From: Phytophthora colocasiae
Taxonomy: Eukaryota > Oomycota > Peronosporomycetes > Peronosporales > Peronosporaceae
Length of the DNA: 64,000 nt
NCBI GenBank assembly: GCA_018806915.1
Contig: JAGKQI010000049.1
Span: forward strand, 248,001 to 312,000
Direction: 5' to 3'
Shown here in pieces: positions 16,865 to 62,141 of the stretch (its first letter is position 1; each line of letters begins with the position of its first letter). The notes beneath the pieces were generated by a model. That model was not told the DNA's origin and did no database searches. It saw only the letters and a program-made list of their open reading frames with translations. The position numbers and the translations under genes are program-made.

Positions 16865-16971
16865 CTTGTGATGTCTAATTCCTGAGTGATTGGACGGACG
16901 AGCGGCATGTCTCCTTCTAAGCCGCAAGGTTACATAATCCAAAAGTGTTGAGTCGACAAACAGTCGGCCAA
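16865..16971. promoter_or_regulatory. Short shared 5' region of two divergent hydrolase genes
   Basis: Only 107 bp separate the ATG of paralogue 1 (minus, 16864) from that of paralogue 2 (plus, 16972). Both transcription starts must lie here or inside the genes, so a bidirectional promoter is likely. No TATA box is apparent. Confidence 0.4.
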
Positions 16972-34488: not shown

Positions 34489-34801
34489 TAGTGTCCTGTG
34501 GTAATGCGCAACTTGAATTGTATTTGGTACAGTCGAGACAGTTCTGAACTCTGTGACTTGATCTGGCTCTGTACAGGCATAGGCAATCAAAACCAAAAGT
34601 AATCATAGTTACTGTATCTGGCGAGTAGCGTAGGTAGTGAAGAAGAAGGTGAGAAGAAGAAGTAGTGTGTAGTTACCGTCAAAAGACGAAGAGAGTTAGA
34701 TTATATGCTTAAGGAAGTTGACTAGCTGCTTACCAGTCATTGTGAACTGGTGTTCACTATAAGTATAGTGAAGCAGCATTATAGTGGCTTTAGCGGGCTC
34801 T

Positions 34802-35041
34802 ATGAGAGCCAGTTATCATATGTCAAAGGTAGGTAAACAGTATGTTGAGAGGTTACTTCAACAGCCTCCCTGCCTCATAACATACTATTTCATACAGCCA
34901 GTTATAGCAACTATCAAAGGTCGGAATTTTAAAAATAAAAAATTCCTCAGTCTGGAAACGCCGCCGGAGGAAGCCCAGCGGCTGCTGTCGATACTTTGCC
35001 CGTTAAGGGAAGTTAGACACCGCAAGGACACGCCCCGGTAG
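34802..35041 (+). CDS. Small open frame in the LTR, 79 codons
   Basis: MRASYHMSKVGKQYVERLLQ ... LSLETPPEEAQRLLSILCPL, stop 16 bp before the ATG of the antisense LTR gene. The same frame is found in the LTR copies starting 48754 and, with a shifted end, 41680; a one-base deletion breaks it in the copy at 55850. The copies are near identical, so this is no test of selection. It may be an upstream frame or simply 5' leader. Confidence 0.25.
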   Translation: MRASYHMSKVGKQYVERLLQQPPCLITYYFIQPVIATIKGRNFKNKKFLSLETPPEEAQRLLSILCPLREVRHRKDTPR

Positions 35042-35057
35042 GAATTCTGACAACACT

Positions 35058-36628
35058 ATGCGTACTAAGCCGGCAGGTAGGGCCTTACGCAAGAGGGGGA
35101 AGAGAAATGCGTCTGCAGCCGAGCTTCGAGCTCGCAAGAGGGCGCGTGCCGCTACACGTGCAGCCAGCACACAAGCCATACCAAGGACTGTTAATACAGC
35201 CGCTGCTGCTGCCTTGGAGTCTAGTAAGCCACCTGAGGAACTGCTGGAGGCTAGCCAGCCACCTGAGGAAATCCTGGAGGCCACGAAGCTCGCCACAGAG
35301 GTCGTTCAAAATGTAGCCATGTCTGACCATGACCTAAATCAACCCCAAAACGGCCCCGAGCAGTCTGCAGCCGACATTACAACGAACCAGGAATGGATTT
35401 GTATATATTGTACGGTGACCAACGCCATCAAGTACTCCCTGTGTCCCAATTGCAAGTGCGGTAGACCCGGAGACATCTGGACCGAGATAGTGGACGAATC
35501 GAGTACCGAGGGCGACGCAACTGGCCAAGAGAGTACCGTGGACGACGTAACTAGCCAAACGAGTACCGTGGACGACGTAACTGACCAAGCGAGTACCGTG
35601 GACGACGGAACGAGTACCGTGGACGATGCAACTGGCCAAATAAGTACCGTGACTGACGGAACGAGTACCGTGGGTGGTCAAGTGGGTACCGTGAGTGACG
35701 CAACGAGTACCGTGTGTGACACAGCTGGCCACTTGAGTACTGTGAGTGACAGAAACAGTACCGTAGATGACGGAAATTTTAACATCGTCAACAGAGTGAA
35801 TTCTACTGTGCCCGACCAGCCGTCTACCGTTCCCGAGAAAATGTACTACCCGATTTCTGGGGAGTATTACACGGGTGAGGATGTTATCGTCGGTGATAAG
35901 TACGCCACCACCGTGGAGGCTTGGCAAGTCGCCTTCATTAATGATCGCCGCGAGACACCTATGGGGTAGAGTACCAGGTGCTTTGGGTACACCACGACCG
36001 ATCTTGCAAGAGGCTGTACATGCGCTCATGGGAACCGCGGTCCAAGTTAGAAGAAGATGACTTCGAGACAGAGATGGCACTTGTTGATCGCTGGAAGGCT
36101 TCGTCGGTTCCGCTGTTCGAGACATTCTGGAAGGAAGATGAGGAAGGTTACTGGCTGATTGGAGCAGATGAAGACAATTTGTGCGTTTTCCAAGCGTTGA
36201 AGCGTGCAGCGAAGCTGTTGGGCCGCCCGGACCTCGTCACGGAGCAGGACATCGAGCAGTTTATCGACGACAGGCTCGTTCTCTACAAGCAAGATCTTCG
36301 AGCGGGGCCACGTGGATTAACGTGCGAGACTTCATGATTCGGCTACGAGAGGCAGGTCGAGATATCAACTACAACGCCTTTGTCAAGAACAACTACATGA
36401 AGCCAGGTCGCCGTGGTGCTCGCGTAATGATGGAGGAACCGCTCAAGGATGGAGTCTACATCGTTGCTGCCTACAATCACAGTCACATTGGCCATGCTGC
36501 AGTGCTTTCTGTCCAAGGGAGAAAACGCCTCATCTACGACAAGAAGAACGAAAAGGTAAGCCGATCACGTCCGCAAAGGGTGGATCAACTTCTATGCATT
36601 CATTCGTCCGTTCATTATCTTTAAGTAG
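35058..36628 (+). CDS. LTR-encoded antisense protein, copy A (two or more frameshifts)
   Basis: ATG 35058. Residues 1-45 are very basic (KRGKR, RARKRARAATR), nuclear or RNA-binding in character. Residues 113-132 are an exact RanBP2-type zinc finger, W-x-C-x2-C-x3-N-x6-C-x2-C (WICIYCTVTNAIKYSLCPNC). Residues ~146-260 are repeats of STVDDVT(S/G/D)Q type. About 285-345 is chromo-like (YQVLWVHHDRSCKRLYMRSW, EPRSKLEEDD). The C-terminal ~170 residues carry EDNLCVFQALKRAAKLLG and YNHSHIGHAAVL, a Cys/His pair placed as in OTU or other papain-fold peptidases. Here the frame breaks at single missing G residues near 35965 and 36305 and a missing A near 36555. The gene lies wholly inside the LTR, opposite in sense to gag-pol. 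Function unproven. Confidence 0.65.
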
Positions 36629-36873
36629 ATGATAGGAGTCGGTAGGATTTTCGCGGGTTTGCCTAACCGATAATGGACCTTCCCAGCAAATTTGTCTCTT
36701 GTGCATGGTTTGTTGTATATAAACTCATGTGCCTAGATAATTCGGTACTTGACCAGGGAAACCTCAACGAGGGAAAACCTGAAGCGAGCAAAAGATAAAA
36801 CCCAGTGGGAAAAAAAATCTAAAAGGACGCCGGAGATAGGCACGCTTCATGCAGATGTATCATAAGTGTATTT

Positions 36874-39800
36874 CTATGCTGAGTGGCCGGATTCGGCTAT
36901 CAGGTATTCTACACTGAGCTTGGCCCTTAGTTCTCTGAACTGGTGATTGTCTAAAGCTTTAGTGAAGATGTCAGCTATCATCTCTTTCGTATTGCAGTAG
37001 GTGACGTTGAATTCATGCCTCTCTACCTTTTCTTGTACGAAACAATATCGTACGTGTATATGTTGTTTTGATCGTCCGTGAAGTTCGGGGTTGTAGCAGA
37101 TTTTGATGCAGCTTTGGTTGTCCTCATAAATGATGTTAGCCTGCGTTGTAGCAAAGCCAAGTTCTTTGAGGAGAAGTTTGAGGAAAATCATCTCTTGCAT
37201 GCAGTGACACAGGGCGATATATTCTGCCTCTGTAGTTGAGAGAACCACAGTGTGGTGCTTCCGGGAGAGCCATGAGATTGGACTGCTTGCGAGCATAGTC
37301 ACATATCCACCGACGGAGCGTCTCGTGTCGGGGCAGTTAGCATAGTCAGAGTCACTGTAGGCAAGTAGCTTGTCGGCTAGGTTCTCCGAGGTAACGTCGG
37401 ACGAGCCTCCCAGAAGGAGACCGTATTCTTTCGTTCCTGACAAATACTTTAGCCCACGAATGACTGCTTTCCAGTGTTCCATGCCTGGATTGGCTAGGAA
37501 TTGACTGACCTCACGCATGTAGAATGCCATGTCGGGTCGTGTCCCAACCATTAGATACATGAAACTGCCTACTGGCTTGGCGATACGGAATTGATTTCAT
37601 CGCATCTTTCTCTTGTTCACTGCTAGGCTGGCTGCTTACGGAGAGTTTGACGTTCCGTTCTGCTGGTGTTGCTATAGGGTACGGAATGTAGTCGCTGAAG
37701 CGGTCAATGACCTTCGTAGCGTACTTGTGTTGGTGGATAAACATCGTTCGGTTCTTTCGGTCACGTTGAATAGACCAGCCGAGTAAAGTACTTCACCTCC
37801 CTAAATCTGACATGGAGAATCGTTTTTCAGGGCTGATTTCAGCTCACTGACGAGTGCTGGTGTAGGCGCAATGATCAGTAAGTCGTCAACGTACACTGCA
37901 ATATAACAAGTGACGTTGTCAACAGTGCGTCGAAAGACACATCGATCTTTAGTGAGTTTCAGAAATCCAAGGCTCTCTAGAAAGGCAGACAAGGTTTGGT
38001 ACCAGACACGGGGTGCTTGCTTTAACCCGTATAAGCTCTTAAGAAGTTTGCACACTAGATGCTCCTTGCCCGGGATTTTGAAACCTTCCGGTTGAGCCAT
38101 GTAGATCTCTTCTTCCAAATAGCCATTAAGGAATGCTGTTTTGACATCCATTTGGTGAACTTCAAGGTCGAGAAGAGCTGCAATAGTAAGCAGTAGTCTG
38201 AGTACCTCCATCCTGATGACAGGGGAGAAAATCTCATTGTAGTCGATGCCAAATTCCTGTAGGAACCCTTTGATCACCAGACGCGCCTTAAAGCGGTCAA
38301 TTTCGCCAGTGCCGGTATACTTCACTACGAAGACCCATCGGCTACTCAAGATCTTCCTCCTTTTAGGAGGGTTTACCAACACCCAAGTGTTATTGTCCAT
38401 GAGGGACTTAGCTGCTGAATGCCACTGGTTAGCGTGGGAAGACTTCATTGCTTCCCGATACGTAGTGGGCTCTGACACATACCGAATAGCTAGTAATGTG
38501 TACAGTAAATGCTGACGTTGCTCCTGTTCGTGGATGTCTTCCTCAGAGTTGAGGGTTACGTCACAGGCTTCCTCAGTGTTGAGTCGCGCGTTAGTGGCTT
38601 CCGCAGTGAGGCGGGGTCGCTTAGGAGCTGTAGTGTGCGGAGGATCAGAGTCCGTCTCCGTCCGAAATGAGTAATGAATGGCTGTTCGATCAATAGCCTC
38701 CCTCAAAGAGGGTAGTACCCGTTTGTTGGCTGTACCTGGTACGGTTCCCGTTGCAGTACCTGAAGTGGGTAATGGTGTCGTCACTGGTTCTGATTCAGGC
38801 TCAGTTTCATGCTCTTGTGATGGCAGAACAGCAGGTGCAGGTGACGCAGGTACAGGTACAGGTTCAGCAGGTTGCTGCCTGTTGGTGGGTTGTGTGGGCT
38901 CTGGTGTAGACGTCAGGCCATTGAGAGGGGGAAATTCGTCCTCTTTAAAAACTACATCACGACTATACACAATGGCATGTGTGTTAATGTCCATGAGACG
39001 ATATCCTTTCTTGTGGTCAGGTACGCCGAGATACATGCACAAACGGGCTCTAGCGTCGAGTTTGTCTCGGTATTGCTCCGTGATGTGGACATATCCACTA
39101 CATCCAAAGACTTTGATGTATTGCATCGAGGGGATTCGGTTGTACCAAAGTTCGTACGGGGTTCGACCGTCCGTCTTAGAGCTAGGCGTCATGTTGATGA
39201 GAGTTGTCACGTGACAGACACACTCGACCCACAATCTCTTGGAGAGTTTGCCGTCAAGTAGAAGGGCTCGGACACGCTCCATGATAGTACGCATGCGGCG
39301 TTCAGCAACTCCATTCTGCTGAGGAGTATACGCGTTGGTGAATTGTGCATGAGTCCCATACTTTTAAAGATGATTCGACCCAGCTTCTCGTACTCTTTCG
39401 CATTGTCTGCTTGGAGACGTTGAATCTCGAAATTTTCGTGAGACTTATCGTCTTCAGGACTGAACGTGTACTCAATGACAGAGATATCTTGTCTAAAGAT
39501 GTTCAGGGCTTTCTTCCTGAAGTCTTCGTAGCAGTCGTACAACTCGCTACGGTTCTTAATTGCATAAGTGAACATGAATCGAGAAAAGTCATCGATGAAG
39601 ATCAAGAAGTAACGGCAACCAGTAAGACTAGGCACAGGTAGTGGACCACAGATATCTGAATGGATTTTCGACAAAGGTGATGTGGCACGTTTAACAACTC
39701 TATTAGAGTAAAAGGGGAGCGGTGTGACTTCGCTAACGTGCATGCAACACAGAAGAAATCTGACTTAGAACCTAGAGGTACAGATTCGTCGAGTCCATCT

Positions 39801-41673
39801 ATGGCTTGGCTCCTAGATAGGTCATTCAAGACACGAACGTTAGGATGTCCAAGGCGTTTATGTAAGAGCAGAAAGGAACGTTGCTTACCTGAGGCAATAA
39901 GGGCCGCTGGTGGTGCCGCTGGCTTGGCTTGGAACTGATACAGGTCCGTGTTGTTAGCCATGAGTGCCTTGATCTTGAAGCGCTGGTCGGTTTGCATAGC
40001 ACACTGTTTGCGGTCAAAGCTGAAGCGAAAATCATGCTTCACCGCTGCTGGAATAGACAGCAGGCTGAATTGGAGCTGGGGAGCGTACAAGACACCATGG
40101 AGGATAAGCTTCTGCATGTTGCCCTTGGAGTCAGAGACTTGTAGCTCGACCCGTCCAATGCCTTCAATGGGGATCTTGTTGTTTCCGCCAACCGTGATCG
40201 ATCCACCACTAGTGGTGATGTCAGTAAACCACTGGGATTCATGGGACACATGGCGTGTGCAGCCAGAGTCGATCGTCCAGGTGGGGTCAGGTTCAACCTT
40301 GGCTTGAGCGGTAAGGCTAAACTGAGGATTGACTGTGGTGGCGACAGCAATGAGACCAGTATCACGACGTCCTTGGCGAGACACCTTCCGGTTGCCAGAT
40401 TCATTGTCGTTGTCATCGTCGTCGTCATTGTCTGACTCGAGAGGGCGGTCCTTGTAGCGCTCTTGGCCACGTTGTTTGCCACCGTTCCCGTGTTTCTTGT
40501 TGTTGCCACCGTTGTTGCCCTTGAAGTCTCGGTTGTTATTTCCCTTGTAGCTGCGCCCGTTGTTCGAGTTCCGATACGGATGATCGCGCTTCGAGTTACC
40601 CTTGAAAGCGAAATTAGCAGGGAGTACCGTTCCAGCTTTCACTCGTCCATCACGCAAGTCCTTTTGTAGACCGCGGCACTGACGAATGTTGTGGCGTGGG
40701 CGATCACAGTACGAGCAGATATTGGCATTGTCGCGCTCTGATGCAGAAGGCCCAGTTGCCACAAGAGCTCGCTCACCCTTGGTTGCAGGAGTCTCAGGGT
40801 ACCCTTGGCCAAGGTGTAGCGCTCCTGAGCTTGGAGGTCGCGAACCTTGCCTTCGATACTCTGCTTGAGATCTTCATACGGGATATACTTCCGTTGGCCC
40901 TTCCAAATGCGGAGATCATCCTTCCATGACTTGGGCATCGAATGGAACAGGTAGATAGACTTCTGTCCCTCGGTCATCACCGACTCGGTGGCTTCTGACG
41001 CGGCTTTCATCGCGTTCTCAAGTTTGAGAAAGAATTCAGTCAAGTCGGATCCTTCCTCATACTTGATCTCCATCAAGTAGTGTTGGATGAAGTACGGATC
41101 ACCGTGAAAGGCTGCTCCCTCGTACTTCTGGCAGATGTAGTTGAAAATCTCGTAGGAAGTCTTGAGATTCTTGACCAGCCGCACGTGCATGTTGTCCATC
41201 GTCTTCATCAAGAAGGCTTTGGTCTTGGCTTCTTGGCGACGGCGCTCACGCTGGGTAAGAGGCTGAGGCTTCTCTTTCTTCAGGTGCTTACGTGCTCGAC
41301 GAGCTTCACGCGAGTTGAACGGTCGGACGGCTGGAAGATCCTTGCGCTTGATGGACCCATCTGAGCTGGCTCCCGAGTCATCATCAGAGTCCGAGGGCGG
41401 CTTTAGCTCGTCATCGCTCTCCTCGTAGTCCACAGCGTCAGAGTCGACTTCAGCATCCTTGGTGGCCTTGGCAGGAGGGTCGTCGTCGTCGGACATGTCG
41501 TTAGTGCTGTCTTCACTCTCTTCGTCTGACACACCATCGTAGTCGAGCTGCTTCACGTAGCCGAGCAGGTGCTTGCCATCGAGTGCTGCGCACACGCGAG
41601 CCTTCCACACGTCGAAGTTCTCGGCACCGATGAGTCGTGGGAAGTCGTCGCTTGAGGCTTGTCTTGGGCTCAT
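36874..41673 (-). pseudogene. Copia gag-pol polyprotein, copy A
   Basis: About 1600 codons from ATG 41673 to the stop at 36874. Order: Gag with an acidic insert (residues ~45-105) and helical capsid-like part; zinc knuckle CSYCDRPRHNIRQC (C-x2-C-x4-H-x4-C); a tract of Asn/Gly/Lys; protease WTIDSGCTRH; GAG-pre-integrase LLHKRLGHPN; integrase with FIDDFSRFM, LQADNAKEY and TPQQNGVAERR (DDE); RT with DVKTAFLNGYLEEE, SLYGLKQAP and VYVDDLLI; RNase H with YSDSDYAN, STTEAEYIAL and YEDNQSCIK. One-base breaks occur near 40805, 39715, 39365, 37825 and 37580, mostly in homopolymers. A 12-bp in-frame deletion before LMDNNTW (38405) is unique to this copy. Confidence 0.9.
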
Positions 41674-41677
41674 AACC
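41666..41677 (-). other. Primer-binding site of Copia copy A, half-tRNA type
   Basis: On the minus strand GGTTATGAGCCC lies 2 bp after the LTR end. It is complementary to GGGCUCAUAACC, the anticodon stem-loop of initiator tRNA-Met in many eukaryotes, as in Drosophila copia, which primes from a cleaved tRNA half. The gag ATG sits inside this site. Confidence 0.65.
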
Positions 41678-41679
41678 TC

Positions 41680-43906
41680 TGGCGAGTAGCGTAGGTAGTG
41701 AAGAAGAAGGTGAGAAGAAGAAGTAGTGTGTAGTTACCGTCAAAAGACGAAGAGAGTTAGATTATATGCTTAAGGAAGGTGACTAGCTGCTTACCAGTCA
41801 TTGTGGAACTGGTGTTCACTATAAGTATAGTGAAGCAGCATTATAGTGGCTTTAGCGGGCTCTATGAGAGCCAGTTATCATATGTCAAAGGTAGGTAAAC
41901 AGTATGTTGAGAGGTTACTTCAACAGCCTCCCTGCCTCATAACATACTATTTCATACAGCCAGTTATAGCAACTATCAAAGGTCGGAATTTTAAAAATAA
42001 AAAATTCCTCAGTCTGGAAACGCCGCCGGAGGAAGCCCAGCGGCTGCTGTCGATACTTTGCCCGTTAAGGGAAGTTAGACACCGCAAGGACACGCCCGGT
42101 AGGAATTCTGACAACACTATGCGTACTAAGCCGGCAGGTAGGGCCTTACGCAAGAGGGGGAAGAGAAATGCGTCTGCAGCCGAGCTTCGAGCTCGCAAGA
42201 GGCGCGTGCCGCTACACGTGCAGCCAGCACACAAAGCCCATACCAAGGACTGTTAATACAGCCGCTGCTGCTGCCTTGGAGTCTAGTAAGCCACCTGAGG
42301 AACTGCTGGAGGCTAGCCAGCCACCTGAGGAAATCCTGGAGGCCACGAAGCTCGCCACAGAGGTCGTTCAAAATGTAGCCATGTCTGACCATGACCTAAA
42401 TCAACCCCAAAACGGCCCCGGAGCAGTCTGCAGCCGACATTACAACGAACCAGGAATGGATTTGTATATATTGTACGGTGACCAACGCCATCAAGTACTC
42501 CCTGTGTCCCAATTGCAAGTGCGGTAGACCCGGAGACATCTGGACCGAGATAGTGGACGAATCGAGTACCGAGGGCGACGCAACTGGCCAAGAGAGTACC
42601 GTGGACGACGTAACTGGCCAAACGAGTACCGTGGACGACGTAACTGACCAAGCGAGTACCGTGGACGACGGAACGAGTACCGTGGACGATGCAACTGGCC
42701 AAATAAGTACCGTGACTGACGGAACGAGTACCGTGGGTGGTCAAGTGGGTACCGTGAGTGACGCAACGAGTACCGTGTGTGACACAGCTGGCCACTTGAG
42801 TACTGTGAGTGACAGAAACAGTACCGTAGATGACGGAAATTTTAACATCGTCAACAGAGTGAATTCTACTGTGCCCGACCAGCCGTCTACCGTTCCCGAG
42901 AAAATGTACTACCCGATTTCTGGGGAGTATTACACGGGTGAGGATGTTATCGTCGGTGATAAGTACGCCACCACCGTGGAGGCTTGGCAAGTCGCCTTCA
43001 TTAATGATCGCCGCGAGACACCTATGGGGGTAGAGTACCAGGTGCTTTGGGTACACCACGACCGATCTTGCAAGAGGCTGTACATGCGCTCATGGGAACC
43101 GCGGTCCAAGTTAGAAGAAGATGACTTCGAGACAGAGATGGCACTTGTTGATCGCTGGAAGGCTTCGTCGGTTCCGCTGTTCGAGACATTCTGGAAGGAA
43201 GATGAGGAAGGTTACTGGCTGATTGGAGCAGATGAAGACAATTTGTGCGTTTTCCAAGCGTTGAAGCGTGCAGCGAAGCTGTTGGGCCGCCCGGACCTCG
43301 TCACGGAGCAGGACATCGAGCAGTTTATCGACGACAGGCTCGTTCTCTACAAGCAAGATCTTCGAGCGGGGGCCACGTGGATTAACGTGCGAGACTTCAT
43401 GATTCGGCTACGAGAGGCAGGTCGAGATATCAACTACAACGCCTTTGTCAAGAACAACTACATGAAGCCAGGTCGCCGTGGTGCTCGCGTAATGATGGAG
43501 GAACCGCTCAAGGATGGAGTCTACATCGTTGCTGCCTACAATCACAGTCACATTGGCCATGCTGCAGTGCTTTCTGTCCAAGGAGAAAACGCCTCATCTA
43601 CGACAAGAAGAACGAAAAGGTAAGCCGATCACGTCCGCAAAGGGGTGGATCAACTTCTATGCATTCATTCGTCCGTTCATTATCTTTAAGTAGATGATAG
43701 GAGTCGGTAGGATTTTCGCGGGTTTGCCTAACCGATAATGGACCTTCCCAGCAAATTTGTCTCTTGTGCATGGTTTGTTGTATATAAACTCATGTGCCTA
43801 GATAATTCGGTACTTGACCAGGAAACCTCAACGAGGGAAAACCTTAAGCGAACAAAAAGATAAAACCCAGTGGGAAAAAAATCTAAAAGGACGCCGGAGA
43901 TAGGCA
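41680..43906 (-). repeat. Copia LTR copy B
   Basis: Lies between gag-pol A and gag-pol B, serving as 5' LTR of A and 3' LTR of B. Has the two-unit form of the 30-bp coding repeat, as copy A does. Confidence 0.75.
42119..43693 (+). CDS. LTR-encoded antisense protein, copy B (frameshifted near the start)
   Basis: Same domain order as the copy at 35058. It is broken by single-base losses at 42203 (GGCGCG for GGGCGCG), by an added base in 42417-42421, and near 43583 and 43618. From about 42478 to 43580 the frame is continuous through the zinc-finger end, repeat tract, chromo-like region and the Cys/His domain. The repeat tract lacks the third STVDDVT unit. Confidence 0.6.
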
Positions 43907-43937
43907 CGCTTCATGCAGTTGTATCATCAGTGTATTT

Positions 43938-46900: not shown

Positions 46901-48746
46901 AAGACACGAACGTTAGGATGTCCAAGGCGTTTATGTAAGAGCAGAAAGGAACGTTGCTTACCTGAGGCAATAAGGGCCGCTGGTGGTGCCGCTGGCTTGG
47001 CTTGGAACTGATACAGGTCCGTGTTGTTAGCCATGAGTGCCTTGATCTTGAAGCGCTGGTCGGTTTGCATAGCACACTGTTTGCGGTCAAAGCTGAAGCG
47101 AAAATCATGCTTCACCGCTGCTGGAATAGACAGCAGGCTGAATTGGAGCTGGGGAGCGTACAAGACACCATGGAGGATAAGCTTCTGCATGTTGCCCTTG
47201 GAGTCAGAGACTTGTAGCTCGACCCGTCCAATGCCTTCAATGGGGATCTTGTTGTTTCCGCCAACCGTGATCGATCCACCACTAGTGGTGATGTCAGTAA
47301 ACCACTGGGATTCATGGGACACATGGCGTGTGCAGCCAGAGTCGATCGTCCAGGTGGGGTCAGGTTCAACCTTGGCTTGAGCGGTAAGGCTAAACTGAGG
47401 ATTGACTGTGGTGGCGACAGCAATGAGACCGGTATCACGACGTCCTTGGCGAGACACCTTCCGGTTGCCAGATTCATTGTCGTTGTCATCGTCGTCGTCA
47501 TTGTCTGACTCGAGAGGGCGGTCCTTGTAGCGCTCTTGGCCACGTTGTTTGCCACCGTTCCCGTGTTTCTTGTTGTTGCCACCGTTGTTGCCCTTGAAGT
47601 CTCGGTTGTTATTTCCCTTGTAGCTGCGCCCGTTGTTCGAGTTCCGATACGGATGATCGCGCTTCGAGTTACCCTTGAAAGCGAAATTAGCAGGGAGTAC
47701 CGTTCCAGCTTTCACTCGTCCATCACGCAAGTCCTTTTGTAGACCGCGGCACTGACGAATGTTGTGGCGTGGGCGATCACAGTACGAGCAGATATTGGCA
47801 TTGTCGCGCTCTGATGCAGAAGGCCCAGTTGCCACAAGAGCTCGCTCACCCTTGGTTGCAGGAGTCTCAGGGGTACCCTTGGCCAAGGTGTAGCGCTCCT
47901 GAGCTTGGAGGTCGCGAACCTTGCCTTCGATACTCTGCTTGAGATCTTCATACGGGATATACTTCCGTTGGCCCTTCCAAATGCGGAGATCATCCTTCCA
48001 TGACTTGGGCATCGAATGGAACAGGTAGATAGACTTATGTCCTCGGTCATCACCGACTCGGTGGCTTCTGACGCGGCTTTCATCGCGTTCTCAAGTTTGA
48101 GAAAGAATTCAGTCAAGTCGGATCCTTCCTCATACTTGATCTCCATCAAGTAGTGTTGGATGAAGTACGGATCACCGTGAAAGGCTGCTCCCTCGTACTT
48201 CTGGCAGATGTAGTTGAAAATCTCGTAGGAAGTCTTGAGATTCTTGACCAGCCGCACGTGCATGTTGTCCATCGTCTTCATCAAGAAGGCTTTGGTCTTG
48301 GCTTCTTGGCGACGGCGCTCACGCTGGGTAAGAGGCTGAGGCTTCTCTTTCTTCAGGTGCTTACGTGCTCGACGAGCTTCACGCGAGTTGAACGGTCGGA
48401 CGGCTGGAAGATCACTTGCGCTTGATGGACCCATCTGAGCTGGCTCCCGAGTCATCATCAGAGTCCGAGGGCGGCTTTAGCTCGTCATCGCTCTCCTCGT
48501 AGTCCACAGCGTCAGAGTCGACTTCAGCATCCTTGGTGGCCTTGGCAGGAGGGTCGTCGTCGTCGGACATGTCGTTAGTGCTGTCTTCACTCTCTTCGTC
48601 TGACACACCATCGTAGTCGAGCTGCTTCACGTAGCCGAGCAGGTGCTTGCCATCGAGTGCTGCGCACACGCGAGCCTTTCACACGTCGAAGTTCTCGGCA
48701 CCGATGAGTCGTGGGAAGTCGTCGCTTGAGGCTTGTCTTGGGCTCA
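43938..48746 (-). pseudogene. Copia gag-pol polyprotein, copy B
   Basis: Same architecture as copy A. Gag codon ~23 is a nonsense change (TGG to TGA near 48679), a substitution not explained by homopolymer error, and there are indels near 48415 and 48040. 48012-46675 and 46816-45224 are long open frames covering zinc knuckle to protease and integrase to early RT. A 2-bp deletion near 45285 in the RT fingers (EIFS|PVIRMEV) is shared with copy C but not A. 45312-44146 then runs uninterrupted through YVDD and most of RNase H, and an extra base near 44147 precedes the last segment. Confidence 0.9.
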
Positions 48747-48751
48747 TAACC
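48740..48751 (-). other. Primer-binding site of Copia copy B
   Basis: GGTTATGAGCCC on the minus strand, 2 bp from the LTR edge at 48754; identical to the site of copy A. Confidence 0.65.
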
Positions 48752-48753
48752 TC

Positions 48754-51011
48754 TGGCGAGTAGCGTAGGTAGTGAAGAAGAAGGTGAGAAGAAGAAGTAG
48801 TGTGTAGTTACCGTCAAAAGACGAAGAGAGTTAGATTATATGCTTAAGGAAGTTGACTAGCTGCTTACCAGTCATTGTGAACTGGTGTTCACTATAAGTA
48901 TAGTGAAGCAGCATTATAGTGGCTTTAGCGGGCTCTATGAGAGCCAGTTATCATATGTCAAAGGTAGGTAAACAGTATGTTGAGAGGTTACTTCAACAGC
49001 CTCCCTGCCTCATAACATACTATTTCATACAGCCAGTTATAGCAACTATCAAAGGTCGGAATTTTAAAAATAAAAAATTCCTCAGTCTGGAAACGCCGCC
49101 GGAGGAAGCCCAGCGGCTGCTGTCGATACTTTGCCCGTTAAGGGAAGTTAGACACCGCAAGGACACGCCCCGGTAGGGAATTCTGACAACACTATGCGTA
49201 CTAAGCCGGCAGGTAGGGCCTTACGCAAGAGGGGAAGAGAAATGCGTCTGCAGCCGAGCTTCGAGCTCGCAAGAGGGCGCGTGCCGCTACACGTGCAGCC
49301 AGCACACAAGCCATACCAAGGACTGTTAATACAGCCGCTGCTGCTGCCTTGGAGTCTAGTAAGCCACCTGAGGAACTGCTGGAGGCTAGCCAGCCACCTG
49401 AGGAAATCCTGGAGGCCACGAAGCTCGCCACAGAGGTCGTTCAAAATGTAGCCATGTCTGACCATGACCTAAATCAACCCCAAAACGGCCCCGAGCAGTC
49501 TGCAGCCGACATTACAACGAACCAGGAATGGATTTGTATATATTGTACGGTGACCAACGCCATCAAGTACTCCCTGTGTCCCAATTGCAAGTGCGGTAGA
49601 CCCGGAGACATCTGGACCGAGATAGTGGACGAATCGAGTACCGAGGGCGACGCAACTGGCCAAGAGAGTACCGTGGACGACGTAACTGGCCAAACGAGTA
49701 CCGTGGACGACGTAACTAGCCAAACGAGTACCGTGGACGACGTAACTGACCAAGCGAGTACCGTGGACGACGGAACGAGTACCGTGGACGATGCAACTGG
49801 CCAAATAAGTACCGTGACTGACGGAACGAGTACCGTGGGTGGTCAAGTGGGTACCGTGAGTGACGCAACGAGTACCGTGTGTGACACAGCTGGCCACTTG
49901 AGTACTGTGAGTGACAGAAACAGTACCGTAGATGACGGAAATTTTAACATCGTCAACAGAGTGAATTCTACTGTGCCCGACCAGCCGTCTACCGTTCCCG
50001 AGAAAATGTACTACCCGATTTCTGGGGAGTATTACACGGGTGAGGATGTTATCGTCGGTGATAAGTACGCCACCACCGTGGAGGCTTGGCAAGTCGCCTT
50101 CATTAATGATCGCCGCGAGACACCTATGGGGGTAGAGTACCAGGTGCTTTGGGTACACCACGACCGATCTTGCAAGAGGCTGTACATGCGCTCATGGGAA
50201 CCGCGGTCCAAGTTAGAAGAAGATGACTTCGAGACAGAGATGGCACTTGTTGATCGCTGGAAGGCTTCGTCGGTTCCGCTGTTCGAGACATTCTGGAAGG
50301 AAGATGAGGAAGGTTACTGGCTGATTGGAGCAGATGAAGACAATTTGTGCGTTTTCCAAGCGTTGAAGCGTGCAGCGAAGCTGTTGGGCCGCCCGGACCT
50401 CGTCACGGAGCAGGACATCGAGCAGTTTATCGACGACAGGCTCGTTCTCTACAAGCAAGATCTTCGAGCGGGGGCCACGTGGATTAACGTGCGAGACTTC
50501 ATGATTCGGCTACGAGAGGCAGGTCGAGATATCAACTACAACGCCTTTGTCAAGAACAACTACATGAAGCCAGGTCGCCGTGGTGCTCGCGTAATGATGG
50601 AGGAACCGCTCAAGGATGGAGTCTACATCGTTGCTGCCTACAATCACAGTCACATTGGCCATGCTGCAGTGCTTTCTGTCCAAGGGAGAAAACGCCTCAT
50701 CTACGACAAGAAGAACGAAAAAGGTAAGCCGATCACGTCCGCAAAGGGGTGGATCAACTTCTATGCATTCATTCGTCCGTTCATTATCTTTAAGTAGATG
50801 ATAGGAGTCGGTAGGATTTTCGCGGGTTTGCCTAACCGATAATGGACCTTCCCAGCAAATTTGTCTCTTGTGCATGGTTTGTTGTATATAAACTCATGTG
50901 CCTAGATAATTCGGTACTTGACCAGGGAAACCTCAACGAGGGAAAACCTTAAGCGAACAAAAAGATAAAACCCAGTGGGAAAAAAATCTAAAAGGACGCC
51001 GGAGATAGGCA
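48754..51011 (-). repeat. Copia LTR copy C
   Basis: About 30 bp longer than copies A and B because the internal coding repeat has three units. Confidence 0.75.
49194..50797 (+). CDS. LTR-encoded antisense protein, copy C (best preserved)
   Basis: Apart from one missing G near 49232 in the basic N-terminus, the frame is open from about 49240 to the stop at 50797. It gives a continuous RanBP2 zinc finger, three STVDDVT units, the chromo-like segment, and the C-terminal Cys/His domain ending ITSAKGWINFYAFIRPFIIF. That the downstream ~480 codons are open without a stop, antisense to the retroelement transcript, is the main evidence that this is a true gene. The corrected length is about 534 codons. 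Confidence 0.7.
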
Positions 51012-51042
51012 CGCTTCATGCAGTTGTATCATCAGTGTATTT

Positions 51043-54000
51043 CTATGCTGAGTGGCCGGATTCGGCTTTCAGGGATTCTACCCTGAGCTTGGCCCTTAGT
51101 TCTCTGAACTGGTGCTTGTCTAAAGCTTTAGTGAAGATGTCAGCTATCATCTCTTTCGTATTGCAGTAGGTGACGTTGAATTCATGCCTCTCTACCTTTT
51201 CTTGTACGAAACAATATCGTACGTGTATATGTTTTGATCGTCCGTGAAGTTCGGGGTTGTAGCAGATTTTGATGCAGCTTTGGTTGTCCTCATAAATGAT
51301 GTTAGCCTGCGTTGTAGCAAAGCCAAGTTCTTTGAGGAGAAGTTTGAGGAAAATCATCTCTTGCATGCAGTGACACAGGGCGATATATTCTGCCTCTGTA
51401 GTTGAGAGAACCACAGTGTGGTGCTTCCGGGAGAGCCATGAGATTGGACTGCTTGCGAGCATAGTCACATATCCACCGACGGAGCGTCTCGTGTCGGGGC
51501 AGTTAGCATAGTCAGAGTCACTGTAGGCAAGTAGCTTGTCGGCTAGGTTCTCCGAGGTAACGTCGGACGAGCCTCCCAGAAGGAGACCGTATTCTTTCGT
51601 TCCTGACAAATACTTTAGCCCACGAATGACTGCTTTCCAGTGTTCCATGCCTGGATTGGCTAGGAATTGACTGACCTCACGCATGTAGAATGCCATGTCG
51701 GGTCGTGTCCCAACCATTAGATACATGACACTGCCTACTGCTTGGCGATACGGAATTGATTTCATCGCATCTTTCTCTTGTTCACTGCTAGGCTGGCTGC
51801 TTACGGAGAGTTTGACGTTCCGTTCTGCTGGTGTTGCTATAGGGTACGGAATGTAGTCGCTGAAGCGGTCAATGACCTTCGTAGCGTACTTGTGTTGGTG
51901 GATAAACATCGTTCGGTTCTTTCGGTCACGTTGAATAGACCAGCCGAGTAAGTACTTCACCTCCCCTAAATCTGACATGGAGAATCGTTTTTCAGGGCTG
52001 ATTTCAGCTCACTGACGAGTGCTGGTGTAGGCGCAATGATCAGTAAGTCGTCAACGTACACTGCAATATAACAAGTGACGTTGTCAACAGTGCGTCGAAA
52101 GACACATCGATCTTTAGTGAGTTTCAGAAATCCAAGGCTCTCTAGAAAGGCAGACAAGGTTTGGTACCAGACACGGTGCTTGCTTTAACCCGTATAAGCT
52201 CTTAAGAAGTTTGCACACTAGATGCTCCTTGCCCGGGATTTTGAAACCTTCCGGTTGAGCCATGTAGATCTCTTCTTCCAAATAGCCATTAAGGAATGCT
52301 GTTTTGACATCCATTTGGTGGACTTCAAGGTCGAGAAGAGCTGCAATAGTAAGCAGTAGTCTGAGTACCTCCATCCTGATGACAGGAGAAAATCTCATTG
52401 TAGTCGATGCCAAATTCCTGTAGGAACCCTTTGATCACCAGACGCGCCTTAAAGCGGTCAATTTCGCCAGTGCCGGTATACTTCACTACGAAGACCCATC
52501 GGCTACTCAAGATCTTCCTCCTTTTAGGAGGGTTTACCAACACCCAAGTGTTATTGTCCATGAGGACTTGTATTCCGATTTAGCTGCTGAATGCCACTGG
52601 TTAGCGTGGGAAGACTTCATTGCTTCCCGATACGTAGTGGGCTCTGACACATACCGAATAGCTAGTAATGTGTACAGTAAATGCTGACGTTGCTCCTGTT
52701 CGTGGATGTCTTCCTCAGAGTTGAGGGTTACGTCACAGGCTTCCTCAGTGTTGAGTCGCGCGTTAGTGGCTTCCGCAGTGAGGCGGGGTCGCTTAGGAGC
52801 TGTAGTGTGCGGAGGATCAGAGTCCGTCTCCGTCCGAAATGAGTAATGAATGGCTGTTCGATCAATAGCCTCCCTCAAAGAGGGTAGTACCCGTTTGTTG
52901 GCTGTACCTGGTACGGTTCCCGTTGCAGTACCTGAAGTGGGTAATGGTGTCGTCACTGGTTCTGATTCAGGCTCAGTTTCATGCTCTTGTGATGGCAGAA
53001 CAGCAGGTGCAGGTGACGCAGGTACAGGTACAGGTTCAGCAGGTTGCTGCCTGTTGGTGGGTTGTGTGGGCTCTGGTGTAGACGTCAGGCCATTGAGAGG
53101 GGAAATTCGTCCTCTTTAAAAACTACATCACGACTATACACAATGGCATGTGTGTTAATGTCCATGAGACGATATCCTTTCTTGTGGTCAGGTACGCCGA
53201 GATACATGCACAAACGGGCTCTAGCGTCGAGTTTGTCTCGGTATTGCTCCGTGATGTGGACATATCCACTACATCCAAAGACTTTGATGTATTGCATCGA
53301 GGGATTCAGTTGTACCAAAGTTCGTACGGGGTTCGACCGTCCGTCTTAGAGCTAGGCGTCATGTTGATGAGAGTTGTCACGTGACAGACACACTCGACCC
53401 ACAATCTCTTGGAGAGTTTGCCGTCAAGTAGAAGGGCTCGGACACGCTCCATGATAGTACGCATGCGGCGTTCAGCAACTCCATTCTGCTGAGGAGTATA
53501 CGCGTTGGTGAATTGTGCATGAGTCCCATACTTTTTAAAGATGATTCGACCCAGCTTCTCGTACTCTTTCGCATTGTCTGCTTGGAGACGTTGAATCTCG
53601 AAATTTTCGTGAGACTTATCGTCTTCAGGACTGAACGTGTACTCAATGACAGAGATATCTTTCTAAAGATGTTCAGGGCTTTCTTCCTGAAGTCTTCGTA
53701 GCAGTCGTACAACTCGCTACGGTTCTTAATTGCATAAGTGAACATGAATCGAGAAAAGTCATCGATGAAGATCAAGAAGTAACGGCAACCAGTAAGACTA
53801 GGCACAGGTAGTGGACCACAGATATCTGAATGGATTTTCGACAAAGGTGATGTGGCACGTTTAACAACTCTATTAGAGTAAAAGGGGGAGCGGTGTGACT
53901 TCGCTAACGTGCATGCAACACAGAAGAAATCTGACTTAGAACCTAGAGGTACAGATTCGTCGAGTCCATCTATGGCTTGGCTCCTAGATAGGTCATTCAA

Positions 54001-55843
54001 GACACGAACGTTAGGATGTCAAGGCGTTTATGTAAGAGCAGAAAGGAACGTTGCTTACCTGAGGCAATAAGGGCCGCTGGTGGTGCCGCTGGCTTGGCTT
54101 GGAACTGATACAGGTCCGTGTTGTTAGCCATGAGTGCCTTGATCTTGAAGCGCTGGTCGGTTTGCATAGCACACTGTTTGCGGTCAAAGCTGAAGCGAAA
54201 ATCATGCCTTCACCGCTGCTGGAATAGACAGTAGGCTGAATTGGAGCTGGGGAGCGTACAAGACACCATGGAGGATAAGCTTCTGCATGTTGCCCTTGGA
54301 GTCAGAGACTTGTAGCTCGACCCGTCCAATGCCTTCAATGGGGATCTTGTTGTTTCCGCCAACCGTGATCGATCCACCACTAGTGGTGATGTCAGTAAAC
54401 CACTGGGATTCATGGGACACATGGCGTGTGCAGCCAGAGTCGATCGTCCAGGTGGGGTCAGGTTCAACCTTGGCGAGCGGTAAGTCTAAACTGAGGATTG
54501 ACTGTGGTGGCGACAGCAATGAGACCGGTATCACGACGTCCTTGGCGAGACACCTTCCGGTTGCCAGATTCATTGTCGTTGTCATCGTCGTCGTCATTGT
54601 CTGACTCGAGAGGGCGGTCCTTGTAGCGCTCTTGGCCACGTTGTTTGCCACCGTTCCCGTGTTTCTTGTTGTTGCCACCGTTGTTGCCCTTGAAGTCTCG
54701 GTTGTTATTTCCCTTGTAGCTGCGCCCGTTGTTCGAGTTCCGATACGGATGATCGCGCTTCGAGTTACCCTTGAAAGCAGAAATTAGCAGGAGTACCGTT
54801 CCAGCTTTCACTCGTCCATCACGCAAGTCCTTTTGTAGACCGCGGCACTGACGAATGTTGTGGCGTGGGCGATCTGATACGAGCAGATATTGGCATTGTC
54901 GCGCTCTGATGCAGAAGGCCCAGTTGCCACAAGAGCTCGCTCACCCTTGGTTGCAGGAGTCTCAGGGGTACCCTTGGCCAAGGTGTAGCGCTCCTGAGCT
55001 TGGAGGTCGCGAACCTTGCCTTCGATACTCTGCTTGAGATCTTCATACGGGATATACTTCCGTTGGCCCTTCCAAATGCGGAGATCATCCTTCCATGACT
55101 TGGGCATCGAATGGAACAGGTAGATAGACTTCTGTCCCTCGGTCATCACCGACTCGGTGGCTTCTGACGCGGCTTTCATCGCGTTCTCAAGTTTGAGAAA
55201 GAATTCCAGTCAAGTCGGATCCTTCCTCATACTTGATCTCCATCAAGTAGTGTTGGATGAAGTACGGATCACCGTGAAAGGCTGCTCCCTCGTACTTCTG
55301 GCAGATGTAGTTGAAAATCTCGTAGGAAGTCTTGAGATTCTTGACCAGCCGCACGTGCATGTTGTCCATCGTCTTCATCAAGAAGGCTTTGGTCTTGGCT
55401 TCTTGGCGACGGCGCTCACGCTGGGTAAGAGGCTGAGGCTTCTCTTTCTTCAGGTGCTTACGTGCTCGACGAGCTTCACGCGAGTTGAACGGTCGGACAG
55501 CTGGAAGATCCTTGCGCTTGATGGACCCATCTGGGCTGGCTCCCGAGTCATCATCAGAGTCCGAGGGCGGCTTTAGCTCGTCATCGCTCTCCTCGTAGTC
55601 CACAGCGTCAGAGTCGACTTCAGCATCCTTGGTGGCCTTGGCAGGAGGGTCGTCGTCGTCGGACATGTCGTTAGTGCTGTCTTCACTCTCTTCGTCTGAC
55701 ACACCATCGTAGTCGAGCTGCTTCACGTAGCCGAGCAGGTGCTTGCCATCGAGTGCTGCGCACACGCGAGCCTTCCACACGTCGAAGTTCTCGGCACCGA
55801 TGAGTCGTGGGAAGTCGTCGCTTGAGGCTTGTCTTGGGCTCAT
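51043..55843 (-). pseudogene. Copia gag-pol polyprotein, copy C
   Basis: Same architecture as copy A. 54000-53377 reads through the pre-integrase/integrase junction (SHRSPFYSNRVVKRATSPLS) in one frame, where A and B are each broken by loss of a different base, so the join here is probably the true one. Breaks occur near 55205, 54875, 54780, 54470, 54205, 54020, 53660, 53300, 52565, 52395 (the 2-bp deletion shared with copy B), 52180 and 51990. 51978-51043 is a clean frame for the end of RT and all of RNase H. Confidence 0.9.
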
Positions 55844-55847
55844 AACC
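55836..55847 (-). other. Primer-binding site of Copia copy C
   Basis: GGTTATGAGCCC on the minus strand, 2 bp from the LTR edge at 55850. Confidence 0.65.
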
Positions 55848-55849
55848 TC

Positions 55850-58104
55850 TGGCGAGTAGCGTAGGTAGTGAAGAAGAAGGTGAGAAGAAGAAGTAGTGTG
55901 TAGTTACCGTCAAAAGACGAAGAGAGTTAGATTATATGCTTAAGGAAGTTGACTAGCTGCTTACCAGTCATTGTGAACTGGTGTTCACTATAAGTATAGT
56001 GAAGCAGCATTATAGTGGCTTTAGCGGGCTCTATGAGAGCCAGTTATCATATGTCAAAGGTAGGTAAACAGTATGTTGAGAGGTTACTTCAACAGCCTCC
56101 TGCCTCATAACATACTATTTCATACAGCCAGTTATAGCAACTATCAAAGGTCGGAATTTTAAAAATAAAAAATTCCTCAGTCTGGAAACGCCGCCGGAGG
56201 AAGCCCAGCGGCTGCTGTCGATACTTTGCCCGTTAAGGGAAGTTAGACACCGCAAGGACACGCCCCGGTAGGAATTCTGACAACACTATGCGTACTAAGC
56301 CGGCAGGTAGGGCCTTACGCAAGAGGGAAGAGAAATGCGTCTGCAGCCGAGCTTCGAGCTCGCAAGAGGGCGCGTGCCGCTACACGTGCAGCCAGCACAC
56401 AAGCCATACCAAGGACTGTTAATACAGCCGCTGCTGCTGCCTTGGCAGGTCTAGTAAGCCACCTGAGGAACTGCTGGAGGCTAGCCAGCCACCTGAGGAA
56501 ATCCTGGAGGCCACGAAGCTCGCCACAGAGGTCGTTCAAAATGTAGCCATGTCTGACCATGACCTAAATCAACCCCAAAACGGCCCCGAGCAGTCTGCAG
56601 CCGACATTACAACGAACCAGGAATGGATTTGTATATATTGTACGGTGACCAACGCCATCAAGTACTCCTGTGTCCCAATTGCAAGTGCGGTAGACCCGGA
56701 GACATCTGGACCGAGATAGTGGACGAATCAGTACCGAGGGCGACGCAACTGGCCAAGAGAGTACCGTGGACGACGTAACTGGCCAAACGAGTACCGTGGA
56801 CGACGTAACTAGCCAAACGAGTACCGTGGACGACGTAACTGACCAAGCGAGTACCGTGGACGACGGAACGAGTACCGTGAACGATGCAACTGGCCAAATA
56901 AGTACCGTGACTGACGGAACGAGTACCGTGGGTGGTCAAGTGGGTACCGTGGTGACGCAACGAGTACCGTGTGTGACACAGCTGGCCACTTGAGTACTGT
57001 GAGTGACAGAAACAGTACCGTAGATGACGGAAATTTTAACATCGTCAACAGAGTGGAATTCTACTGTGCCCGACCAGCCGTCTACCGTTCCCGAGAAAAT
57101 GTACTACCCGATTTCTGGGAGTATTACACGGGTGAGGATGTTATCGTCGGTGATAAGTACGCCACCACCGTGGAGGCTTGGCAAGTCGCCTTCATTAATG
57201 ATCGCCGCGAGACACCTATGGGGGGTAGAGTACCAGGTGCTTTGGGTACACCACGACCGATCTTGCAAGAGGCTGTACATGCGCTCATGGGAACCGCGGT
57301 CCAAGTTAGAAGAAGATGACTTCGAGACAGAGATGGCACTTGTTGATCGCTGGAAGGCTTCGTCGGTTCCGCTGTTCGAGACATTCTGGAAGGAAGATGA
57401 GGAAGGTTACTGGCTGATTGGAGCAGATGAAGACAATTTGTGCGTTTTCCAAGCGTTGAAGCGTGCAGCGAAGCTGTTGGGCCGCCGGACCTCGTCACGG
57501 AGCAGGACATCGAGCAGTTTATCGACGACAGGCTCGTTCTCTACAAGCAAGATCTTCGAGCGGGGGCCACGTGGATTAACGTGCGAGACTTCATGATTCG
57601 GCTACGAGAGGCAGGTCGAGATATCAACTACAACGCCTTTGTCAAGAACAACTACATGAAGCCAGGTCGCCGTGGTGCTCGCGTAATGATGGAGGAACCG
57701 CTCAAGGATGGAGTCTACATCGTTGCTGCCTACAATCACAGTCACATTGGCCATGCTGCAGTGCTTTCTGTCCAAGGGAGAAAACGCCTCATCTACGACA
57801 AGAAGAACGAAAAAGGTAAGCCGATCACGTCCGCAAAGGGGTGGATCAACTTCTATGCATTCATTCGTCCGTTCATTATCTTTAAGTAGATGATAGGAGT
57901 CGGTAGGATTTTCGCGGGTTTGCCTAACCGATAATGGACCTTCCCAGCAAATTTGTCTCTTGTGCATGGTTTGTTGTATATAAACTCATGTGCCTAGATA
58001 ATTCGGTACTTGACCAGGGAAACCTCAACGAGGGAAAACCTTAAGCGAACAAAAAGATAAAACCCAGTGGGAAAAAAAATCTAAAAGGACGCCGGAGATA
58101 GGCA
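55850..58104 (-). repeat. Copia LTR copy D
   Basis: Three-unit version of the coding repeat, like copy C, but with many more one-base indels than the other copies. Confidence 0.75.
56288..57889 (+). pseudogene. LTR-encoded antisense protein, copy D (many one-base breaks)
   Basis: Same gene as at 49194, interrupted by single-base indels near 56327, 56446, 56668, 56730, 56952, 57055, 57118, 57222 and 57486. The last ~130 codons (57500-57889) are open and identical in character to copy C, including YNHSHIGHAAVL. Confidence 0.65.
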
Positions 58105-58135
58105 CGCTTCATGCAGTTGTATCATCAGTGTATTT

Positions 58136-58828
58136 CTATGCTGAGTGGCCGGATTCGGCTTTCAGGGATTCTACCCTGAGCTTGGCCCTTAGTTCTCTGA
58201 ACTGGTGCTTGTCTAAAGCTTTAGTGAAGATGTCAGCTATCATCTCTTTCGTATTGCAGTAGGTGACGTTGAATTCATGCCTCTCTACCTTTTCTTGTAC
58301 GAAACAATATCGTACGTGTATATGTTTTGATCGTCCGTGAAGTTCGGGGTTGTAGCAGATTTTGATGCAGCTTTGGTTGTCCTCATAAATGATGTTAGCC
58401 TGCGTTGTAGCAAAGCCAAGTTCTTTGAGGAGAAGTTTGAGGAAAATCATCTCTTGCATGCAGTGACACAGGGCGATATATTCTGCCTCTGTAGTTGAGA
58501 GAACCACAGTGTGGTGCTTCCGGGAGAGCCATGAGATTGGACTGCTTGCGAGCATAGTCACATATCCACCGACGGAGCGTCTCGTGTCGGGGCAGTTAGC
58601 ATAGTCAGAGTCACTGTAGGCAAGTAGCTTGTCGGCTAGGTTCTCCGAGGTAACGTCGGACGAGCCTCCCAGAAGGAGACCGTATTCTTTCGTTCCTGAC
58701 AAATACTTTAGCCCACGAATGACTGCTTTCCAGTGTTCCATGCCTGGATTGGCTAGGAATTGACTGACCTCACGCATGTAGAATGCCATGTCGGGTCGTG
58801 TCCCAACCATTAGATACATGACACTGCC
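58136..58828 (-). pseudogene. Copia pol fragment, copy D (end of RT and RNase H)
   Basis: The last ~228 codons of the array polyprotein (MYLMVGTRPDMAFYMREVSQ to ESGHSA), open. At 58828 the sequence switches abruptly to another Copia family in the opposite orientation, so the rest of this unit is missing. Confidence 0.9.
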
Positions 58829-62121: not shown

Positions 62122-62141
62122 TCGTCTCGACGCCACCGAAC

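What the first reader, a model, noticed from the sequence alone, without database searches (positions are those of the whole stretch)
34619..58104. Copia LTRs of about 2.2 kb that each encode a protein antisense to gag-pol
Seen: the segment between successive gag-pol units (34619, 41680, 48754, 55850) has the PBS directly at one edge, contains no shorter direct repeat, and carries one ~520-535-codon plus-strand gene while gag-pol is on the minus strand. Known: coding capacity inside an LTR is rare (MMTV sag is the textbook case), and extra antisense genes in plant elements lie between pol and the 3' LTR, not in it. Inference: this Copia lineage duplicates a gene with every LTR, so even solo LTRs would spread it. 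The protein could act on silencing, chromatin targeting or host defence.
Basis: partly seen in the sequence, partly recalled or inferred. Interest (0 to 1): 0.9.

Follow-up and report, generated by a model that had tools for sequence, protein, structure and literature searches.

The report
Antisense chromodomain-protease gene in Copia retrotransposons
A family of jumping genes in a water mould (an oomycete close to Phytophthora) carries, on the strand opposite its own replication genes, an extra gene for a predicted chromatin-binding protease that is swapped between copies like a cassette; the gene is real, but it lies beside the element's short terminal repeats and not inside them.

Summary
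Window 34617 to 68314 (past the window end) is a tandem array of Copia units that share 247-bp LTRs and sit between one 5-bp target duplication. Single copies elsewhere have the same short LTRs and their own duplications, and a polypurine tract touches the LTR, so the plus-strand gene lies between pol and the 3' LTR. The antisense gene is real: open in two single copies (534 and 527 codons), under purifying selection (dN/dS 0.14 and 0.16 in the two best-informed pairs), with relatives in many Phytophthora species, and opposite pol at 22 of 28 places examined (0 same-strand, 6 without pol). Its C-terminal half is predicted to fold as a chromodomain plus a papain-like cysteine protease with conserved Cys, His and Asp; some members add an NZF-type zinc finger. 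Elements with about 96-97% identical pol carry versions of this gene only about 55% identical in DNA, with the break at its stop codon: cassette exchange. Antisense accessory genes are known in plant and fungal elements; my searches found no report of this make-up. The mechanism, probably countering chromatin silencing, is inferred.

The parts
34612..34616 (.). left target-site duplication of the whole array (CTGTA); its partner is at G000:C50:316315-316319, beyond the window
34617..34863 (-). LTR, 247 bp (3' LTR of unit 1 in gag-pol sense)
34864..34873 (-). polypurine tract GCAGGGAGGC directly before the 3' LTR (exact also at 41926-41935 and 48999-49008)
35058..36628 (+). antisense accessory gene, unit 1 (interrupted by frameshifts)
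36861..41673 (-). gag-pol region of unit 1 (interrupted); gag ATG at 41673 lies inside the PBS
41663..41677 (-). primer binding site GGTTATGAGCCCAAG next to the 5' LTR of unit 1 (also 48737-48751 and 55833-55847); likeness to internal initiator-tRNA-Met priming is recalled, not tested
41678..41925 (-). LTR shared by units 1 and 2
42119..43693 (+). antisense accessory gene, unit 2 (interrupted; ends worked out from tblastn matches)
43925..48751 (-). gag-pol region of unit 2 (interrupted)
48752..48998 (-). LTR shared by units 2 and 3
49217..50797 (+). antisense accessory gene, unit 3: longest open frame of the four, 526 codons stop to stop, disturbed at its start
51030..55847 (-). gag-pol region of unit 3 (interrupted)
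55848..56094 (-). LTR shared by units 3 and 4
56288..57889 (+). antisense accessory gene, unit 4 (interrupted; ends worked out from tblastn matches)
58123..58829 (-). first part of the internal region of unit 4, cut by a nested Copia and an inversion; the unit ends at an LTR at C50:316070-316314 beyond the window

Best explanation
A Ty1/Copia LTR retrotransposon family of a Phytophthora-like oomycete carries an accessory gene between pol and the 3' LTR, on the opposite strand. SHOWN by sequence: short LTRs, TSDs, PBS and PPT; convergent gene order; purifying selection; the gene and the gag-pol module have separate histories. SHOWN only by prediction: the protein has a basic N-terminus, in some members an NZF/RanBP2-type zinc finger, then a chromodomain and a papain-like cysteine protease domain with conserved Cys, His and Asp. 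INFERRED mechanism: the gene is transcribed from a promoter of its own beside or in the 3' LTR, and its protein enters the nucleus, where the chromodomain binds methylated histone H3 on silenced element copies and the protease removes ubiquitin or a ubiquitin-like tag from, or cleaves, a chromatin or silencing protein, so that the element escapes silencing. Reverse-transcriptase template switching between co-packaged RNAs then swaps LTR-plus-accessory-gene cassettes between elements, keeping several old versions in circulation on one successful gag-pol.
Confidence: 0.35

Rival explanations
1. Integration targeting: the chromodomain tethers the pre-integration complex to heterochromatin in trans, as the integrase chromodomain of chromoviruses does in cis, and the protease matures or releases the complex.
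For: [quoted passage not shown] Predicted chromodomain.
Against: The domain is in a separate, oppositely encoded protein and not part of integrase; a Copia pol normally brings its own aspartic protease (recalled). The chromatin state of insertion sites was not tested.
Confidence: 0.22
2. Competition control: the protein acts against rival elements or co-resident copies (superinfection or copy-number control), for example by cutting Gag of other types, and diversity of cassettes reflects that contest.
For: Several old versions ride on one gag-pol, as expected if a rare version has an advantage; a protease could act on Gag.
Against: Gag-pol is shared almost unchanged between the carriers, so self and rival Gag hardly differ; no pair has dN/dS over 1.
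Confidence: 0.13
3. The antisense RNA matters and the protein is incidental: convergent transcription makes double-stranded RNA and small RNAs that restrain the element.
For: Small RNAs in both orientations map to LTR elements in P. infestans, and a gene overlapping a Copia LTR with probable convergent transcription gathers small RNAs (PMC3522703, passages seen). The review PMC7264820 names this option for plant elements.
Against: Amino-acid sequence is conserved beyond what an RNA function needs: pN 0.31 against pS 0.71 between C43 and C80.
Confidence: 0.08
4. One reading: the LTR is 2.2 kb and contains the gene.
For: Within the array alone, successive units share the whole stretch.
Against: Short LTRs, TSDs and PPT; young C21 and C43 have identical 245-bp LTR pairs and only one copy of the gene.
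Confidence: 0.01
5. A captured host gene, passenger without function in the element.
For: Six places carry the gene without pol in the flank seen, among them near-identical copies C11, C82 and C101 and one of a multi-copy set at 24-27% identity.
Against: Found on the same side and strand in Copia lineages whose RT differs by about 23% (L048, L050), with purifying selection between copies; passengers decay.
Confidence: 0.1

Closest known systems
Antisense additional ORFs between pol and 3' LTR (aORF-3R) of plant and fungal elements: Grande gene23, RIRE2, Retand, PvRetro13, Boty brtn
   Same: Place, orientation, presence in most copies of a family, nuclear or DNA-related guesses about function (PMC7264820 read in two of three parts; PMC11963269 passages; PMC8365987 passages).
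   Different: The named examples are in plants and a fungus (Retand is Ty3/Gypsy; Boty is called BcGypsy1), with TRP28 or SMC-like or no known domain; here it is a Copia element of an oomycete with a predicted chromodomain and papain-like protease, exchanged as a cassette.
Chromodomain-bearing LTR elements: Chromoviruses, oomycete Chronos, diatom Copia CoDi-I (PMC5348765, passages)
   Same: An LTR element that encodes a chromodomain; CoDi-I is also Copia and also in a stramenopile.
   Different: There the chromodomain goes with integrase (INT-CHD); here it is in a separate antisense gene fused to a protease.
Ginger1 transposons with OTU or Ulp1 protease domains (PMC2836005, abstract and passages)
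   Same: A mobile element that has taken up a cysteine protease of ubiquitin/SUMO-processing type.
   Different: DNA transposon with the protease at the C-terminus of the transposase; the protease here was not matched to the OTU or Ulp1 families.
Recombinant Onsen elements in Arabidopsis (PMC5668417, abstract and outline)
   Same: Members of an LTR retrotransposon family recombine pairwise during bursts.
   Different: There within one family; here the exchanged piece is an accessory gene about 45% different in DNA, with its LTR.

Membership tests
Ty1/Copia LTR retrotransposon | order gag, PR, IN, RT-RH with Copia-type RT (RVT_2) | tested here: met
   Pfam Retrotran_gag_2, Pol_BBD, gag_pre-integrs, rve (below its cut-off), SH3_retrovirus, RVT_2 in that order over four separate open pieces of unit 2
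Ty1/Copia LTR retrotransposon | LTRs with TG start, 5-bp TSD, PBS and PPT at the inner edges | tested here: met
   the 3' edge reads CCAGA and not the common CA, as placed by the TSDs
   repeat is 245-247 bp, ORF outside
Antisense accessory gene between pol and 3' LTR (aORF-3R) | ORF between pol and 3' LTR, opposite strand, in most copies | tested here: met
   22 of 28 places held with flanks, 0 same-strand, 6 none; the full list has 88 matches, so this is a part
Antisense accessory gene between pol and 3' LTR (aORF-3R) | own antisense transcript | not testable with these tools
   no RNA data
Chromodomain | three-stranded sheet plus C-terminal helix; profile match | tested here: met
Chromodomain | aromatic cage of three residues | tested here: inconclusive
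   two positions W in 41 of 48 and 46 of 47 rows with a letter, third not aromatic; which columns form the cage is recalled from HP1
Papain-like (clan CA) cysteine protease | Cys at the start of the central helix, then His and Asp/Asn on the sheet | tested here: met
   in the models Cys at helix start, His at strand start, Asp after the next strand; Cys 48/52, His 51/52, Asp 47/54; fold matches of middling Z
Papain-like (clan CA) cysteine protease | peptidase or deubiquitinase activity | not testable with these tools
   needs protein
OTU, Ulp1 or USP family proper | match to the family profile | tested here: inconclusive
   no Pfam or NCBIfam peptidase family appeared; several folds tie in Z
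NZF/RanBP2-type zinc finger | W-x-C-x2-C...N...C-x2-C | tested here: met
   motif in 7 of 13 proteins of 350 aa or more, 7 of all 63 and, by eye, in C43; Pfam only weak, E 0.0067 and 0.087; absent from the C80, C102, C6 and L048 types

The most novel reading that the evidence does not exclude
A retrotransposon-borne, chromatin-guided deubiquitinase: an antisense gene joining an NZF-type (possibly ubiquitin-binding) finger, a heterochromatin-reading chromodomain and a papain-like protease, which strips a ubiquitin-type mark needed for silencing, and which circulates as interchangeable LTR-plus-gene cassettes among elements in an arms race with host silencing.
Probability: 0.22. Interest if true: 0.82.

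Novelty: new variant of a known kind. Interest (0 to 1): 0.6.

Why it matters
Antisense accessory genes of LTR retrotransposons are described in plants and fungi, but the review I read says their function is not known (PMC7264820). This one has two predicted domains that make concrete, cheap predictions: binding to methylated histone tails and cysteine-protease or deubiquitinase activity. The mosaic elements offer a natural experiment: nearly the same gag-pol with very different accessory genes and LTRs. If the anti-silencing reading holds, it would be a protease-based way for a retrotransposon to fight chromatin silencing.

Tried and rejected
Rejected: a 2.2-kb LTR. Positive selection as the cause of the divergence of the gene: dN/dS is below 1 in every pair (0.14-0.45 where at least 17 changes stand behind an unsaturated value, 0.77 for C43-C26 on 14 changes); values over 1 come from C11-C82 and C11-C101, with 5 to 9 changes each. 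One search also used open stretches that start out of frame (C26, C53, C57), which inflates dN there; restricts the range. Chance ORF: excluded by relatives in other species and by dN/dS. Pfam and PDB searches with the single protein gave nothing for the C-terminal half. NCBIfam gave only weak unrelated hits for 8 members. A scan of viral contigs found no relative. Rfam found nothing in the window at gathering thresholds. The bacterial promoter scan has no bearing on an oomycete. ARAGORN in a script gave no tRNA in the part of its output that I saw, so the PBS primer stays unassigned. The stretch taken as the LTR of C6 did not align to the window's LTR (score 6.0, shuffles up to 9.5). Literature: nine searches of open-access PMC full text; the listings show titles and starts of abstracts only, and one search listed 12 of 37. 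None named an antisense gene in an oomycete Copia or a chromodomain-protease in a retroelement. Subscription journals and repeat databases were not searched, so it may be described there.

Rows dropped: the trees used 15 of 21 elements (W1, W2, W4, C21, C22a and C30 left out as array duplicates, or for short or internally duplicated pol). In one search the C21 value for pol (54%) is an artefact of a tandem duplication inside its pol. The clades of the AU tests were named after seeing the identity table, so those p-values are somewhat flattering. The pol tree is nearly a star with one starred branch. Homologue searches scored only the 8000 best candidates. One search covers the places held with flanks, not all 88 matches.
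Full report
WHERE IT IS. The window is G000:C50:248001-312000 of a 92.5-Mb, 105-contig genome. The host is an oomycete close to or in Phytophthora: 62 elicitin matches, and the control search over 14 genomes rang in none, and the nearest proteins of the accessory gene are from Phytophthora. That elicitins mark oomycetes is recalled. The species is not known to me.

ANATOMY. Four units repeat every 7.06-7.10 kb from 34617 at 97.9-99.2% identity. Because the units are head to tail, LTR and internal region cannot be told apart inside the array. Copies elsewhere settle it. C43 (L012:829-8179) and C21 (L011:863-9077) have a 245-bp repeat at both ends and the gene once, between pol and one LTR; C100a (L013) is alike, with one LTR split by another insertion. 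Flanks give 5-bp target duplications GTCAT, GGAAG and AGCTC, and the outer ends of the window's array share CTGTA (right end at C50:316315, beyond the window). They place the LTR edge two bases further out, so the LTR is 247 bp, TGTTGAAG...CCAGA. The polypurine tract GCAGGGAGGC abuts it exactly at three of four units in the window, and the PBS abuts the other side at three junctions. Both LTRs of C21, and both of C43, are identical over 245 bp, so these insertions are young; all five LTRs of the array carry one base that the six LTR sequences from other copies lack, so the array probably grew from one insertion.

THE GENE. Reading from the LTR towards pol on the plus strand, C43 has an open frame of 534 codons and C21 of 527. 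In the window unit 3 is nearly open and the others are broken. Of the 1-2 bp indels of W1, W2 and W3 against C43, 13 of 15, 7 of 13 and 7 of 14 lie in runs of three or more equal bases; so do 9 of 12 in the single copy C21. Assembly errors cannot be excluded for some of them. At 28 places with the gene (the 30 loci, which are 25 places, plus L048, L049 and L050) a Copia RT-RH lies downstream on the opposite strand at 22 and on the same strand at none (C22a has a weaker same-strand match besides); 4 of the 22 are the units of the window. Six have none in the flank held: C100b, where the rest of the internal region follows after a long insertion, and C11, C53b, C82, C101 and C80b. In the own genome 88 and 122 matches were listed for two queries; many are fragments.

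SELECTION. Nei-Gojobori estimates from my own script. Protease part: C43-C53 dN/dS 0.14 and C43-C57 0.16 (149 codons each); C53-C57 0.45, C102-C84b 0.16, C6-C84b 0.32; C43-C26 0.77 on only 14 changes; deep pairs pN 0.22-0.31 against pS 0.66-0.78 and, for C43-C22b, 0.51 against 0.74. Chromodomain part, C43-C84: dN 0.107, dS 0.222 over 95 codons. C43-C84 over 152 codons of the C-terminal half 0.33. N-terminal half: 0.39 for C43-C84, 0.61 for C102-C6, 0.82 on 22 changes for C43-C33. The gene is under purifying selection, strongest in the protease part and weak at the N-terminus.

CASSETTES. Against C43, pol RT-RH DNA is 96.9% identical in C80, 96.4% in C102, 96.9% in C6 and 95.6% in C84b, while the accessory gene is 55.6, 55.1, 54.8 and 54.8%. 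Along the C80 element the internal region is 95.6% identical over 4.8 kb (150-bp bins 80-99%) and identity falls from 93% to 67% and then to about 50% at the stop codon of the gene. The C80 LTR is 214 bp as placed by the PPT and by the bases before its PBS; it aligns to the window's LTR only patchily, though above shuffles (15.5 against at most 8.0). The last bases of the LTR go with the type of the gene: one form in C43, C18 and C84, one each in C53 and C80, one in C6, C102 and C84b. C84, closer to C43 in the gene (87.8%), is farther in pol (93.0%). AU tests reject the gene's clade on pol data (p 0.021) and pol's clade on gene data (p 0.0033). One template switch near the stop codon, with the LTR coming from the same RNA as the gene, explains this; homogenisation of gag-pol by conversion is an alternative that also separates the two modules. 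Pairwise recombination is known from Onsen (PMC5668417, abstract and outline).

RELATIVES; 8 proteins, 7 named Phytophthora, 1 unnamed; 55, of which 50 are named Phytophthora, 4 carry the label Phyca11 (P. capsici, recalled) and 1 is unnamed; 40, 37 named Phytophthora and 3 Phyca11. Some are labelled RanBP2-type or Chromo domain-containing; most are called hypothetical or uncharacterized. The searches depend on shared 5-residue words, so absence elsewhere is weak evidence.

HOW IT MAY WORK. Best guess, 0.35: a nuclear, chromatin-reading protease that lifts silencing from the element. It fits the domains, the purifying selection, and a gene order that itself would yield double-stranded RNA; P. 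infestans makes small RNAs from LTR elements and from a gene that overlaps a Copia LTR (PMC3522703, passages). Rivals are integration targeting (0.22), competition control (0.13), captured passenger (0.10), antisense RNA (0.08) and a coding LTR (0.01); the rest is unassigned.

KNOWN OR NEW. [quoted passage not shown] PMC11963269 and PMC8365987, passages). Chromodomains occur with integrase in Chromoviruses, oomycete Chronos and diatom CoDi-I (PMC5348765, passages). The combination of Copia, oomycete, antisense, chromodomain, papain-like protease and cassette exchange was in none of the listings. I file it as a new variant of a known kind.

Noticed in passing
window 58830-62141 and L009:2825-4621: A different Copia (RT about 31% aa identity to the array's) with 309-bp LTRs is nested in unit 4; its LTRs now lie inverted to each other and the array segment between them is inverted, which one inversion after insertion would explain.
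   Followed up: partly
window 41663-41682, 48737-48756, 55833-55852 (minus strand): The gag ATG lies inside the primer binding site, a few bases after the 5' LTR (CCAGA|GGTTATGAGCCCAAG), so the leader outside the LTR is almost nil.
   Followed up: partly
L029/L047 (C11), L031 (C82), L045 (C101): Near-identical copies of the accessory gene stand without pol in the flank seen; in the C-terminal half they differ by 3 to 9 changes, nearly all nonsynonymous. C11 has kinesin-like and PiggyBac-like ORFs nearby (by eye).
   Followed up: partly
L049 (C80:150181-150795) and about 8 further places: A distant multi-copy set (24-27% identity) keeps a chromodomain-like part and, by eye in L049, the Cys/His/Asp pattern; L049 has no Copia pol in the flank held.
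   Followed up: partly
L011:5781-6825 (C21): A roughly 300-bp piece of the RNase H end of pol is repeated in tandem, four times in all, in the C21 copy.
   Followed up: no
window 35497-35718 and the same place in the other units: Tandem STVDD-type repeats in the middle of the accessory protein vary in number between copies (30-bp steps).
   Followed up: no
window 26017-26517 and 30627-31127: A 501-bp direct repeat, 100% identical, 4.6 kb apart, left of the array.
   Followed up: no
window 5169-6056 and 10893-11790: An inverted repeat of about 900 bp, 94% identical, with a DDE_3 transposase ORF (6662-7594) between the arms.
   Followed up: no
window 15824-16942, 21509-22522, 22729-23778: Three alpha/beta-hydrolase ORFs (DUF1057/Abhydrolase) clustered left of the array.
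   Followed up: no
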